A stretch of DNA of 64,000 nt from Microlunatus sp. Gsoil 973. Lineage in GTDB: Bacteria > Actinomycetota > Actinomycetes > Propionibacteriales > Propionibacteriaceae. The first letter of the stretch is position 1. Every line of letters starts with the position of its first letter. Under the pieces are notes generated by a model. It did not search any database. It had not been told where the DNA came from and was given only the letters and a program-made list of their open reading frames with translations. The stretch spans positions 4,402,001 to 4,466,000 of the forward strand of contig NZ_CP046122.1 in assembly GCF_009707365.1 (NCBI RefSeq). Reading direction: 5' to 3'. The position numbers and the translations under genes are program-made. Below are positions 4,251 to 40,337 of this stretch, piece by piece.

Positions 4251-5177
4251 TCAGCCGAATGCCGTCGCAACCAACAGCCCGACCGCGAGCCCGACGGCGG
4301 ACAGCAGACAGGCCAGGCCGGCAGCCTTCAGCGCCGGAATCAGCTCCCGTCCCTGCGCGCCGCGCAGAACGGTCACCAGTTGAGGTACCAGATACCCGAT
4401 CCCGGCCAGGGCCAGCAGCGACCACCAGGTCATCACCGCCGCAGCGGCGACGTAGGCGACCGTGGCACCGACGGCCAGCCCGGTGAACATCAGCCGGGTG
4501 GCCGGGGCGCCGATCCGGGTCGCCAGGGTGCGCTTGCCGGCGAGCTGGTCACCCGGGATGTCGCGCAGGTTGTTGACCACCAGAACGGCGACGGCCAGCA
4601 GACCGATCGCGACCGCCACCAGCAGCGTCGGCAGATCGATCCGGCCGAGCTGGACCACCGCCGTACCGCAGACCGCGACCAGACCGAAGAAGACGAAGAC
4701 GAAGACCTCACCGAGGCCGAGGTAGCCGTAGGGATGCTTCCCACCGGTGTAGAACCAGGCCGCCAGGATCGCGGCGATGCCGGCAGGGACCAACCACCAC
4801 TGCCAGGAGAGCACCAGCAGCACCAGACCGAGCAGCGCGGCGACCCCGAAGCAGCCGAACGCGGCGCGCTTGACCAGCACCGGCCGGGCTACCCCGGAGC
4901 CGACCAGCCGCATCGGCCCGACGCGGTCCGCGTCGGTGCCGCGGATACCGTCGGAGTAGTCGTTGGCGAAGTTCACCCCGATCTGCAGGGCGACGCTGAG
5001 CAGCAGTGCGAGCAGAGCCGGAACCACCGCGAACGACCCGCCCGCGTACGCCGTCGCAGAGCCGGCGACCACTGGCGCGACCGACAACGGGAGGGTCCGG
5101 GGCCGGGCCCCCTCCACCCACTGGGCGAAGGTGGGCATCCCCGGCGTTCCCGGCATCGTCGATGCCCCACCACTCAC
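4251..5177 (-). CDS. menA: 1,4-dihydroxy-2-naphthoate polyprenyltransferase
   Basis: Membrane UbiA-family prenyltransferase that joins the polyprenyl tail to DHNA, giving demethylmenaquinone. The first Asp-rich site is NDYSDGIRGTD (about residues 69-79) and the second is NNLRDIPGDQLAGKRT; eight or nine hydrophobic helices fit the family. At 308 aa the length is normal. The GTG start overlaps the menE stop by 4 bp (GTGA), so translation is coupled to menE; a second possible start is the ATG at 5156. One copy of the 41-bp dispersed element ends 15 bp upstream of the start, inside the end of menE. The polyprenyl donor probably comes from the synthase at 38899-39891. Confidence 0.93.
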   Translation of the reverse strand: MSGGASTMPGTPGMPTFAQWVEGARPRTLPLSVAPVVAGSATAYAGGSFAVVPALLALLLSVALQIGVNFANDYSDGIRGTDADRVGPMRLVGSGVARPVLVKRAAFGCFGVAALLGLVLLVLSWQWWLVPAGIAAILAAWFYTGGKHPYGYLGLGEVFVFVFFGLVAVCGTAVVQLGRIDLPTLLVAVAIGLLAVAVLVVNNLRDIPGDQLAGKRTLATRIGAPATRLMFTGLAVGATVAYVAAAAVMTWWSLLALAGIGYLVPQLVTVLRGAQGRELIPALKAAGLACLLSAVGLAVGLLVATAFG

Positions 5178-6529
5178 TGCTGATCCCCTTTCGCCGAGGG
5201 GTCAGTAAATCCCTCATTTTCGCGGCGTGTCGTGGTCCTTGCGGCGCCGTTGCGCAGCGCTTCGCGGTCAATTTTGCCGCTTGTGGTGCGCGGCAGGGCA
5301 GGGAGCACCTCGATTCGGGCCGGCAGCTCGTGCGCGGCCAGCCGGGACATGAGGTAGGACCGCAGGCTCTGCGCGTCGAACTGCCCCGACCAGCATTCGG
5401 CGTACGCCACCGGCCGGGCGCCCCATTCCGGATCGGGTACGCCAACGACAGCGATCTCGCCGTCCAGCCCGGGCCACCCACGGGCGACCCGCTCCACCGC
5501 CGCGGTGTCGATCTTGAGGCCGCCGGAGATGATCACGTCGTCGTACCGGCCGAGAATCTCCAGCCGCCCGCCGGACAGCACGCCGCGGTCGTTGGTCCGG
5601 ATCATCCCGTCGATCACCGTCGCGGCGGTCAGCTCGGGACGCAACCGATACCCGGAGAAGAGCATCGGCCCGCCGAGCCAGACCCGGCCCTGGTCCGGTC
5701 GGTCCTCTCCATGGCCGGGTTCAGGCGCCGGATCCCCGACGACACGCCGCGTAAATGAAGGATTTTGTGACCCCTCGCCGGGGTGGAGGGTGACGGTGAC
5801 GCCGGACAGCGGGACGCCGTCGTAGATGCAGCCGCCGCAGGTCTCGCTCATCCCATAGGTGGTGATCACGGTGATCCCGGCGGCGCGGGCCCGGTCGAGC
5901 AGGGCAGTCTCGGCCGGGGCACCGCCGAGCAGTACGGCGTCGACCCGCGCCAGGGCCGCGGCCAGCGCCGGCTCACGCAGCGCCCGGGTCAGTTGGGTGG
6001 GTACAACGGAGAGATAGCTGCGGCCCTCGGCCGAGGCCACCGCGGCAGCCAGCCCCGACAGGTCACGCCCGACATCCAGCACCGGCCGGTCGGCCGCCAC
6101 TGCCCGGGCGACCACCATGAACCCCGCAACGTAGTGGGTCGGCAACGCCAACAGCCAGCGGCCGGGCCCTCCCAACCGCTGCTCGGTCGCCGCCGCGGAT
6201 GCCCGGATCGCCGAGCGGGAGAGCACCACACCCTTCGGGGCACCGGTGGAACCCGACGTCGACACCACGACGGCCGCGTCCGGTTCGGCGACCGGCACCT
6301 CGGGACGCAGCATCGCCCGCACCACGCCTGCGGCGACCGGATCGGCCGGCAGCGGCGCGATCGGCGGTCCGCCGGCCAGGGTCTCGCCGACCACGTCGGC
6401 CAGGTCGGCGACCGGAGTCGCCGGATCCACCAGCCGCAGGTGGTCCGGCCCCGGGCCGGCACCAGCAGCCGAACCCGTCTCCGACCCGGCAGTCGAACCG
6501 GCGGTCGAACCGGCACCAACAGAACTCAC
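5174..6529 (-). CDS. menE: o-succinylbenzoate--CoA ligase with two repeat-derived segments
   Basis: Adenylate-forming ligase activating o-succinylbenzoate to OSB-CoA in menaquinone synthesis. The P-loop-like motif STSGSTGAPKG is at residues 90-100, YGMSETCGGCIYDGVPL near 230-245, and the C-terminal hinge and catalytic lysine region ends with PRTTSGKIDREALR. GTG 6529 follows a CAGACT box at leaderless spacing and gives 451 aa, longer than typical actinobacterial MenE. Part of the excess is a Gly/Ser/Thr/Ala-rich N-terminus. The rest is two segments encoded by the dispersed 41-bp element: residues about 250-264, in a loop after the signature motif, and 433-446 at the C-terminus. Both stay in frame. 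Divergent from menC; overlaps menA. Confidence 0.9.
   Translation of the reverse strand: MSSVGAGSTAGSTAGSETGSAAGAGPGPDHLRLVDPATPVADLADVVGETLAGGPPIAPLPADPVAAGVVRAMLRPEVPVAEPDAAVVVSTSGSTGAPKGVVLSRSAIRASAAATEQRLGGPGRWLLALPTHYVAGFMVVARAVAADRPVLDVGRDLSGLAAAVASAEGRSYLSVVPTQLTRALREPALAAALARVDAVLLGGAPAETALLDRARAAGITVITTYGMSETCGGCIYDGVPLSGVTVTLHPGEGSQNPSFTRRVVGDPAPEPGHGEDRPDQGRVWLGGPMLFSGYRLRPELTAATVIDGMIRTNDRGVLSGGRLEILGRYDDVIISGGLKIDTAAVERVARGWPGLDGEIAVVGVPDPEWGARPVAYAECWSGQFDAQSLRSYLMSRLAAHELPARIEVLPALPRTTSGKIDREALRNGAARTTTRRENEGFTDPSAKGDQQ
5192..5232 (-). repeat. 41-bp dispersed element, copy A (in menE C-terminus)
   Basis: Read on the minus strand this starts CGACACGCCGCG, has GAGGGATTTACTGACCCCTC in its second half and ends GGCG. 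It shares the first 12 bases exactly with copies B and C and most of the remaining 29. GAGGG and CCCTC can pair around a 10-nt loop. It encodes the last residues of MenE (TTRRENEGFTDPSAKG) and stops 15 bp before the menA start codon. Confidence 0.8.
5740..5780 (+). repeat. 41-bp dispersed element, copy B (inside menE)
   Basis: Plus-strand copy beginning CGACACGCCGCG and ending GTGACCCCTCGCCG. It lies inside menE in the opposite orientation to copy A, so MenE translates it as GEGSQNPSFTRRV. The open reading frame is kept, and the segment sits between two strands of the large domain just after the conserved CGGCIYDGVPL motif, where family members normally have a short turn. Confidence 0.8.
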
Positions 6530-17080: not shown

Positions 17081-17121
17081 CGACACGCCGCGCAGATTGA
17101 GGATTTAGTGACCCCTCGGCC
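17081..17121 (+). repeat. 41-bp dispersed element, copy C (end of kinase gene)
   Basis: Begins CGACACGCCGCG and continues with GAGGATTTAGTGACCCCTCGG, as in copies A and B. It covers the last codons and the TAA stop (17105-17107) of the minus-strand phosphotransferase and the 24 bp beyond. The stop codon and final PRGH residues of that protein are therefore supplied by the element. Confidence 0.8.
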
Positions 17122-18091
17122 AATTGCGGCGTTCGGCGAGCCAGTCCGCGACGACCTCACGGCTCCAGCGCTGGTGTTCCCGGAGGTACGGCGAACCGTC
17201 CGGCTCGGGCGAGCCGGAGGCGATCGCGTAGTAGAGCGCCAGATCGGCGAGCAGGGTGTCGATGGCTTCCCGGTCCCCGGGGCCGACCAGCGGACTTGCG
17301 GCGAGGATCGCGTCGGCATCCCAACCGTCACCGCGTACCGAGATCAACAGCGTCACCAGATCGATCCACTGCCTGCCGAGCAACGGGAAGTTCCAGTCGA
17401 CGATCCAGCCACGCCCGTCGGCTCCGATGATCATGTTGTCGTCCCGGAGGTCGGCATGCACCAGCGTGGTCCCGTTGCATCGCTCGGGCAGCGCGGCCAC
17501 CAACTCGCGCATCTCGGCGGCATGATCACCGAACCGCTCGGTGATCATCTCTTCCTTGTCCGGTGACAACTCACCGAGCTCTGCGCTCAACGGCTGCCAC
17601 GGGTAGCCGGCCGGTGCCGGAGTCAGTGCGCGAGCTGCAGCCTCGACCGTCCGCACAGCGATCCGGATGTCGTCGACGGTCCACGGCCGGTGCGGCGGAC
17701 GACCGTCGATCTCGGTGAAGATCAACAACTGCCAGTCGACGGAGTCGATCACCGTGCGGGCGTCGGTGATCAACTCCGGCGCGGGGACAGCGTCCGGCAG
17801 CGTGCGCCGCTTGGTCGCCTCCTTCGCATACGAGTCCAGCAGCCACTCCCGGCCCCAGCCCGCCACCTTGGCGAAGAGCCGGCGACCGTCGGCCAGCACG
17901 AGTCGGGCCGCGAAGCCGGGGGTGTACCCGCTGCGCTCGCTGATCGCCGAGATCACCGGCGATCCGAGTTGATCAACGATCCAGTCCTGCACCGCGCTCG
18001 GCAGCTCGGGCCAGGCCGGACGTTGGGCCGTCGCGGCATGCGGCACGGTCAGCGGGGTCGGCGTACGTGATCCGGGCATACCCCGGATCAT
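17105..18091 (-). CDS. aminoglycoside phosphotransferase-fold (APH) kinase
   Basis: Protein-kinase-like small-molecule kinase, 328 aa, substrate unknown. The catalytic loop is LVHADLRDDNMII (H-x-D-x4-N) and the metal site GWIVDWNFPLLGRQWIDL (D in place of DFG). The N-lobe shows SGYTPGFAARLVLADGRRLFAKV, with the ATP-binding lysine in FAKV. Such proteins range from antibiotic kinases to metabolite kinases; similar actinobacterial proteins are often called aminoglycoside phosphotransferase without evidence of resistance. ATG 18091 is taken, with ATG 18079 as alternative. Its stop lies in copy C of the 41-bp element. Divergent from menF. Confidence 0.8.
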   Translation of the reverse strand: MIRGMPGSRTPTPLTVPHAATAQRPAWPELPSAVQDWIVDQLGSPVISAISERSGYTPGFAARLVLADGRRLFAKVAGWGREWLLDSYAKEATKRRTLPDAVPAPELITDARTVIDSVDWQLLIFTEIDGRPPHRPWTVDDIRIAVRTVEAAARALTPAPAGYPWQPLSAELGELSPDKEEMITERFGDHAAEMRELVAALPERCNGTTLVHADLRDDNMIIGADGRGWIVDWNFPLLGRQWIDLVTLLISVRGDGWDADAILAASPLVGPGDREAIDTLLADLALYYAIASGSPEPDGSPYLREHQRWSREVVADWLAERRNWPRGH

Positions 18092-39923: not shown

Positions 39924-39973
39924 TGCCAGCCTTCCCGCCACACACGATCCCGTTCCCGCACCAGTTGGTCGAC

Positions 39974-40042
39974 CCCGCACCGGTTGGTCGTTGCCGCGAC
40001 CTTTACTCGGCGGCGCACCGGCTGCAGTGGGTGCGGGGCCGA
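39974..40042 (+). repeat. 69-bp direct repeat, copy 1
   Basis: Starts CCCGCACCGGTTGGTC and ends GGGTGCGGGGCCGA. Identical to 40149-40217 over its whole length. Contains two reverse-oriented 19-bp units, the joint CGGCTGCAGTGG and the head of the first forward unit. Confidence 0.88.
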
Positions 40043-40106
40043 GGAAGTGGTGCGGGCCCGAGGAAGTGGTGCGCCGTCGAGGAAGTGGTGCGGGCCCGAG
40101 GAAGTG
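40031..40106 (+). repeat. tandem array 1: four 19-bp units
   Basis: Units begin at 40031, 40050, 40069 and 40088, each exactly 19 bp, all with tail GGAAGTG. Cores are GTGCGGGGCCGA, GTGCGGGCCCGA (twice) and GTGCGCCGTCGA. CGGGCCCG in two cores is a perfect 8-bp palindrome. A fifth, degenerate unit begins at 40107. Confidence 0.88.
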
Positions 40107-40148
40107 GTGCGGCGTAGCCGCGTTCCCCTGGGGTGCCACGCGCTCGTT

Positions 40149-40217
40149 CCCGCACCGGTTGGTCGTTGCCGCGACCTTTACTCGGCGGCGCACCGGCTGC
40201 AGTGGGTGCGGGGCCGA
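40149..40217 (+). repeat. 69-bp direct repeat, copy 2
   Basis: Identical to 39974-40042. After the shared GGGGCCGA the two copies differ at once: copy 1 continues with a GGAAGTG tail, copy 2 with CCAACTG, so the duplication ends at the core/tail boundary. Confidence 0.88.
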
Positions 40218-40319
40218 CCAACTGGTGCGGGGCCGATTAGGGGGTGCGGGACCGAGTAAAGGGTGCGGGGCCGAGTGGAGGGTGCGGGGCCGAGTGGAGG
40301 GTGCGGGGCCGAGTAAAGG
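40206..40319 (+). repeat. tandem array 2: six 19-bp units with changing tails
   Basis: Units begin at 40206, 40225, 40244, 40263, 40282 and 40301. Tails in order are CCAACTG, TTAGGGG, GTAAAGG, GTGGAGG, GTGGAGG, GTAAAGG. The 12-bp core GTGCGGGGCCGA is invariant except one G to A at 40251. A degenerate unit continues to about 40337, where the phytase-like gene ends. Confidence 0.88.
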
Positions 40320-40337
40320 GTGGCGACCCCGAGGGGG

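What the first reader, a model, noticed from the sequence alone, without database searches (positions are those of the whole stretch)
5192..5780. A 41-bp dispersed element is translated in both orientations within menE
Copies A (5192-5232) and B (5740-5780) share CGACACGCCGCG and GGATTT...TGACCCCTCG but lie in opposite orientations inside one gene. Both keep the menE frame: B adds about 14 residues in a loop after the CGGCIYDGVPL motif and A makes the C-terminal tail and abuts the coupled menA start. Bacterial repeats that insert in frame into proteins are rare; Rickettsia palindromic elements are the known parallel. I know no such element in Actinobacteria.
Basis: partly seen in the sequence, partly recalled or inferred. 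Interest (0 to 1): 0.8.

Follow-up and report, generated by a model that had tools for sequence, protein, structure and literature searches.

The report
In-frame REP-like repeats in Microlunatus proteins
A short DNA repeat scattered about a hundred times over an actinobacterium's chromosome, mostly outside genes and often just behind them, has also landed inside several protein genes without breaking the reading frame, including twice in the menaquinone enzyme MenE.

Summary
MenE carries two oppositely oriented copies of a 38-bp element; a third lies at 17081; 100 shuffles gave none. This genome holds 88-97 copies, its closest searched relative Microlunatus endophyticus 52-68. Of 19 congener MenE loci aligned, only these two have insert B; both also share copy A. 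A methyltransferase has a clean net 42-bp in-frame insertion that 17 of 17 congener loci lack. AlphaFold gives these segments low confidence. Most copies are extragenic: in 45 of 80 the TGACCCCTCG end lies within 30 bp of a gene's 3' end. At least four congeners carry diverged 57-nt hairpins (19-nt arm, loop, arm) with co-varying arms; the 38-bp element matches loop plus 3' arm. I read it as a REP-like repeat lacking one arm. No Y1/RAYT gene was found in 20 genus genomes, so its mover is unknown. In-frame REPs are already described in other phyla (PMC3733652), so this is a new variant of a known kind.

The parts
5195..5232 (-). Copy A of the 38-bp element; codes the C-terminal tail of MenE (about residues 430-442 of the ORF used); model match extends to about 5184
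   Evidence: matching site in M. endophyticus L116:2558
5740..5777 (+). Copy B, read antisense in the menE frame (EGSQNPSFTRRV, about residues 248-261); loop insert; model match extends to about 5791
   Evidence: matching site in M. endophyticus L116:2037
17081..17118 (+). Copy C, at the 3' end of a minus-strand ORF; supplies its TAA stop
   Evidence: as L081:3082
5174..6520 (-). menE (2-succinylbenzoate--CoA ligase); start codon uncertain
   Evidence: PF00501 and PF13193; best match 5buq
17105..17956 (-). ORF whose stop codon lies inside copy C; product not tested
   Evidence: own gene caller

Best explanation
The element is a REP-like non-autonomous repeat. Shown: four congeners carry a family of 57-nt hairpins (19-nt arm, 19-nt loop beginning CGACACGCCGC, 19-nt arm, then SCGG) whose arms change together; in this genome and M. 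endophyticus the copies examined have only the part that matches loop plus 3' arm (38 bp), singly, in tandem or as inverted pairs that make long palindromes. Shown: in 45 of 80 extragenic copies the T end lies within 30 bp of a gene's 3' end, and at least one genic copy is a clean insertion with a net length divisible by three. Inferred: the arm was lost rather than never present; copies are made by an unidentified trans-acting enzyme; genic copies survive only where they keep frame and fall in loops, linkers or ends; extragenic copies are kept because the motif acts at transcript 3' ends (terminator, mRNA end or binding site).
For: Copy number without chance matches. Insertions against relatives: methyltransferase, net 42 bp, in 1 of 18 loci; MenE B in 2 of 19 loci; RimO N-terminus, longer insert, in 1 of the 17 loci (of 20) where my motif was found; NrdA N-terminus against one relative. 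Low-confidence segments: MenE 253-272 and 428-448, methyltransferase 340-354. Hairpins: 83.2% of cells paired against 70.6% shuffled (0 of 500 shuffles), covariation score 0.301 against 0.127, slid controls at most 0.118. 3'-end bias: 45 of the 50 gene ends within 30 bp of the T end are 3' ends; 21 of 21 in 32 congener hairpins. At 15 matched intergenic sites of the two species the element is 30.7/38 identical, flanks 14-15/38 ungapped. IS110-type elements sit at one fixed point of the motif in four loci (Pfam of one copy), as REP-targeting ISs do (PMC1525189, passages).
Against: A single 38-bp copy is not a palindrome: its 5' flank pairs no better than shuffled (8.06 against 8.00 of 19, 114 copies), and 65 single copies fold weakly (mean z -0.98 and -0.50 on the two strands, control -0.10). 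No GTAG or CGTC tag by inspection. No Y1 transposase in 20 genomes. In one search the number of pairs with a change on both sides (13 of 19) is only slightly above shuffled (11.3; 31 of 500 shuffles reach it). The flanks were compared without gaps, which understates their identity, and only sites recognisable in both species were used. Target-site duplication not established. E1: the linker varies and the relative's linker is of similar length without the element. The MenE model has 118 of 448 residues below pLDDT 50, so low confidence is not special to the insert. None of 32 congener hairpins with context was inside a gene.
Confidence: 0.75

Rival explanations
1. The 38-bp motif is a binding site for a host DNA-binding protein, kept by selection near 3' ends; the copies are fixed functional sites rather than a mobile family.
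For: Neighbours within 130 bp are spaced near helical steps: inverted 62 (11), 72 (4), 61, 51; direct 52 (4), 62, 63. 113 of 114 copies score above 40 bits. Motif kept at 15 matched sites while ungapped flanks look nearly unrelated.
Against: Two inverted pairs, at 76 and 115, do not fit the steps. The loci were fetched around near-consensus copies, so decayed copies are under-sampled. Genic copies present in one of the two species only point to continued insertion. Covariation in the congener hairpins points to a folded strand.
Confidence: 0.3
2. The inverted pairs are 100-bp MITEs of a DNA transposon whose terminal repeat is the 38-bp unit; single copies are broken or solo ends.
For: 19 inverted pairs with outward T ends, mostly at constant spacing, none the other way within 130 bp; some spacers are palindromic.
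Against: 65 of 114 copies are single; the methyltransferase insert is one 38-bp unit with a net gain of 42 bp; no transposon bounded by these units was noticed in the fetched loci, though no dedicated search was made; the IS110-type copies lie inside the unit.
Confidence: 0.12
3. The MenE segments are ordinary divergent protein sequence and the DNA match is coincidence.
For: The loop varies in length in other congeners.
Against: 0 matches in shuffles, 88 copies in the genome, clean insertion in a second protein.
Confidence: 0.01

Closest known systems
REP elements (GTAG- and CGTC-tagged families; PMC3733652: abstract, sections 6 and 15 and passages read)
   Same: Short, many copies, hairpin-forming in the congeners, opposite-orientation pairs, often close behind ORFs, sometimes supplying the stop codon, sometimes inside ORFs; CGTC REPs also lack a dedicated transposase.
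   Different: 57-nt hairpin with a conserved loop and no GTAG or CGTC tag by inspection; in this clade only loop plus 3' arm; the phyla named in the passages read do not include Actinobacteria, though untagged REP-like repeats of M. tuberculosis are mentioned.
Rickettsia palindromic elements (RPE)
   Same: Present in frame inside unrelated proteins (as told in PMC3733652).
   Different: Here most copies are extragenic and the unit of this species is not palindromic. Other RPE details are recalled; the paper tried was not held.
REP-targeting IS110-type elements such as IS621 (PMC11208160 and PMC1525189, passages)
   Same: An element with PF01548 and PF02371 domains sits at one fixed point of the repeat in four loci.
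   Different: It uses the repeat and is not the repeat; no match of 7 nt or more between its first 260 nt and a target string was found, a crude test of a bridge RNA.
Mycobacterial interspersed repetitive units (MIRU)
   Same: Actinobacterial interspersed repeats that overlap start and stop codons of neighbours (recalled).
   Different: Not compared here.

Membership tests
REP (GTAG/CGTC super-families) | high copy number, dispersed, restricted to few species | tested here: met
REP (GTAG/CGTC super-families) | each unit an imperfect palindrome | tested here: not met
   38-bp units: 8.06 of 19 pairs against 8.00 shuffled, 114 copies; best L050 with 15. Met in the congener hairpins
REP (GTAG/CGTC super-families) | unpaired GTAG or CGTC tag at one end | tested here: not met
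   inspection of the consensus
REP (GTAG/CGTC super-families) | location behind ORFs and opposite-orientation pairs | tested here: met
REP with RAYT | Y1 transposase (PF01797) in the genome | tested here: not met
   0 of 20 genus genomes at E up to 0.001; the control rings in 5 of 14 genomes
RPE-like in-frame insert | in frame in unrelated proteins and absent from orthologues | tested here: met
   MenE B, methyltransferase, RimO, NrdA
RPE-like in-frame insert | insert present in the expressed protein | not testable with these tools
   needs mass spectrometry
MITE of a DNA transposon | terminal repeats shared with an autonomous transposon, target-site duplications | tested here: inconclusive
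   insertion boundary ambiguous by a few bases; no dedicated transposon search
known RNA family (Rfam 15) | match at the gathering score | tested here: not met
   8 loci searched; only a sub-threshold dauA match (29.5 bits, gathering 45, E 0.46) overlaps an inverted pair, in L069

The most novel reading that the evidence does not exclude
A hairpin repeat lost one arm in one lineage of Actinobacteria and the remaining asymmetric 38-bp half went on multiplying without any HUH transposase; it is now both a selected site at gene 3' ends and a recurring source of new protein segments, so that repeat spread, gene ends and protein evolution are coupled through one unit whose mover is unknown.
Probability: 0.35. 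Interest if true: 0.65.

Novelty: new variant of a known kind. Interest (0 to 1): 0.5.

Why it matters
It shows the in-frame, REP-like way of adding protein segments in Actinobacteria, with insertions of different relative age (shared by two species in MenE, in one only in the methyltransferase and RimO) and with congeners in which a full hairpin can be seen. As no Y1 transposase was found in the genus, it is a test case for how REP-like repeats spread without one. Of the held library, searches for Microlunatus with palindromic or REP terms gave 0 papers, as did two with Actinobacteria terms; a looser one gave 15 papers, 10 listed, of which I read only PMC3733652.

Tried and rejected
Chance or plain protein similarity: rejected. 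RAYT mobilisation: not found. Rfam: no family at the gathering score in 8 loci; one sub-threshold dauA match overlaps the L069 pair. Bridge-RNA guide in the IS110-type element: crude test, nothing of 7 nt or more. Pattern searches in 198 family genomes, named genomes and viral contigs gave this genome and M. endophyticus or nothing; only a sequence model showed the diverged hairpins. The covariance model over the family hits 28 of 198 genomes, 13 of them in the genus; only 26 candidates per genome were scored. Of the 15 hits that one search printed uncut outside G004, G008, G011 and G016, several (L274, L276, L278, L279, L282, L283, L286, L288) are another hairpin without the CGACACGCC loop and are not counted; L277 (G017) and L280 (G003) do hold CGACACGCCG in the loop and may be further members. 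Paper searches without a hit; lists.

Full report
Observation. The window holds three copies of a 38-bp element: A 5195-5232 (-), B 5740-5777 (+), C 17081-17118 (+); 100 dinucleotide shuffles gave none. A and B are both read in the menE frame (B). The window lies at 4402001-4466000 of a single-contig 4.91-Mb genome, G000.

Copy number and range. With up to 3 mismatches G000 has 88 copies and one congener, G012, has 52; the other 55 of 57 relatives have none. A sequence model finds 97 and 68 at E up to 0.1 (at most 150 candidates per genome were scored). By pattern, 2 of 198 family genomes have it. Viral contigs: none. G012 is the closest of the genus genomes in four protein searches; no tree was built.

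Anatomy in this clade. In 60 fetched loci (50 of G000, 10 of G012) a weight matrix finds 114 copies (88 and 26), scores 29-66, with nothing above 8 in block-shuffled sequence. The loci were chosen around near-consensus copies. The ends CGACACGCCGC and TGACCCCTCG hardly vary, the middle does; conservation runs on mainly on the TGACCCCTCG (T) side, into SCGG and a G-rich tail. Neighbours within 130 bp: 19 inverted pairs with the other (C) ends inward, at 62 (11), 72 (4), 51, 61, 76 and 115; 6 direct pairs at 52 (4), 62 and 63; none with T ends facing. 18 close inverted pairs fold strongly (mean z -10.9); 65 single copies weakly (mean z -0.98 and -0.50 on the two strands; control -0.10).

Where the copies lie. 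By my own gene caller 80 of 88 G000 copies are not inside a gene; of these, 50 have a gene end within 30 bp of the T end, 45 of them a 3' end, and 14 have one within 30 bp of the C end, all 3'. Eight copies supply a neighbour's stop codon, copy C among them.

Copies inside genes. Open frames through the element with coding-like sequence beside it were listed. MenE: of 19 congener loci aligned (of 20 genomes) only G000 and G012 have insert B, and G012 has copy A at the same place too, both still in frame. A class I methyltransferase has a clean 14-residue, net 42-bp insertion in G000; 17 of 17 congener loci lack it (DNA of 8 loci). RimO: start region alike in G012, but the protein of G000 is about 28 residues longer there, about 13 of them element-coded; my motif was found in 17 of 20 loci and only G000 has the element. 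NrdA: insert near the N-terminus, compared with G012 only. E1 of a 2-oxo acid dehydrogenase: copy in the variable linker between two domains, 14 loci, not a clean insertion. A Tgt-like ORF and L046: open frame only. G012 has a copy at the N-terminus of a TrpE-like ORF where G000 has none. RimO, NrdA, Tgt and TrpE are my reading of motifs; MenE, the methyltransferase and E1 have Pfam support. AlphaFold: pLDDT below 50 at MenE 253-272 and 428-448 (also 1-74) and at methyltransferase 340-354 (also 7-14, 135-153, 253-256); the element codes about 248-261, 430-442 and 343-355. Keeping frame is cheap: five of the six frames are open in 81-103 of 114 copies, the sixth in 3.

The hairpin family. The model finds weaker relatives in four congeners: G008 81, G004 33, G011 18, G016 19 matches at E up to 1. 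I examined 67 hairpins from them, neighbours included: 19-nt arm, 19-nt loop beginning CGACACGCCGC, 19-nt arm, then SCGG. Mean paired of 19: 16.0 (14 copies, G004), 17.5 (15, G011), 13.0 (9, G016), 15.7 (29, G008). 83.2% of cells pair (shuffled 70.6%, 0 of 500), covariation score 0.301 (shuffled 0.127, slid controls at most 0.118); 13 of 19 pairs change on both sides, against 11.3 shuffled, which 31 of 500 shuffles reach. The 5' flanks of G000 and G012 copies do not pair: 8.06 of 19 against 8.00 shuffled, 114 copies, best L050 with 15. So the 38-bp unit matches loop plus 3' arm; that an arm was lost is inference. In 32 congener hairpins with context, 21 have a gene end within 30 bp of the 3' arm, all 3' ends; none was inside a gene.

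Maintenance. At 15 intergenic sites matched between the two species the element is 30.7 of 38 identical and the flanks, compared without gaps, 14-15 of 38; the variable columns are hardly more alike (5.3 of 11) than in mismatched pairs (4.7). This fits selection on the motif or homogenisation, but counts only sites recognisable in both species.

A user of the repeat. An element of about 1.4 kb, whose ORF has PF01548 and PF02371 (one copy tested), sits at the same point after CGACACGCCG in four loci (L063, L066, L068, L078). L063 is 99.65% identical to L068 and to L078, and L087 of G012 is the matching site without it for L078. REP-targeting IS110 elements are known (PMC1525189 and PMC11208160, passages).

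Known kinds. PMC3733652 (abstract, sections 6 and 15, passages) describes REPs behind ORFs, in pairs, supplying stop codons, and inside ORFs in several species; CGTC REPs lack a dedicated transposase; the phyla named there do not include Actinobacteria, but untagged REP-like repeats of M. tuberculosis are mentioned. PMC2817692 (passages) gives the RAYT link. No Y1 transposase was found in 20 genus genomes; the control rings in 5 of 14. The element works like a REP but fails three REP tests (palindromic unit, tag, RAYT), so I call it REP-like and not a REP.

Verdict.

Noticed in passing
window 39950-40330: Two blocks of 19-bp direct repeats rich in GGTGCGGG, with 27-bp inverted arms between the blocks.
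   Followed up: no
L063:3230-4636, L066:3070-4476, L068:3179-4585, L078:3133-4539: Four IS110-type elements at the same point of the 38-bp repeat; a model hit at G000:C1:3609546 may mark a fifth.
   Followed up: partly
L274, L276, L278, L279, L282, L283, L286, L288: Elsewhere in the family a different hairpin, CGACTTGTCAG..CTGACAAGTCG or close to it, without the CGACACGCC loop.
   Followed up: partly
L277 (G017), L280 (G003): Hairpins with quite different arms (CGAGCGGTAGGTTGC..) that still hold CGACACGCCG in the loop; possible further members.
   Followed up: no
L215, L224, L259, L260, L262: Copies of G011 whose loop is itself self-complementary, making near-perfect palindromes.
   Followed up: no
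L050:3053: The one copy of this clade whose 5' flank pairs well with the 3' arm (15 of 19).
   Followed up: partly
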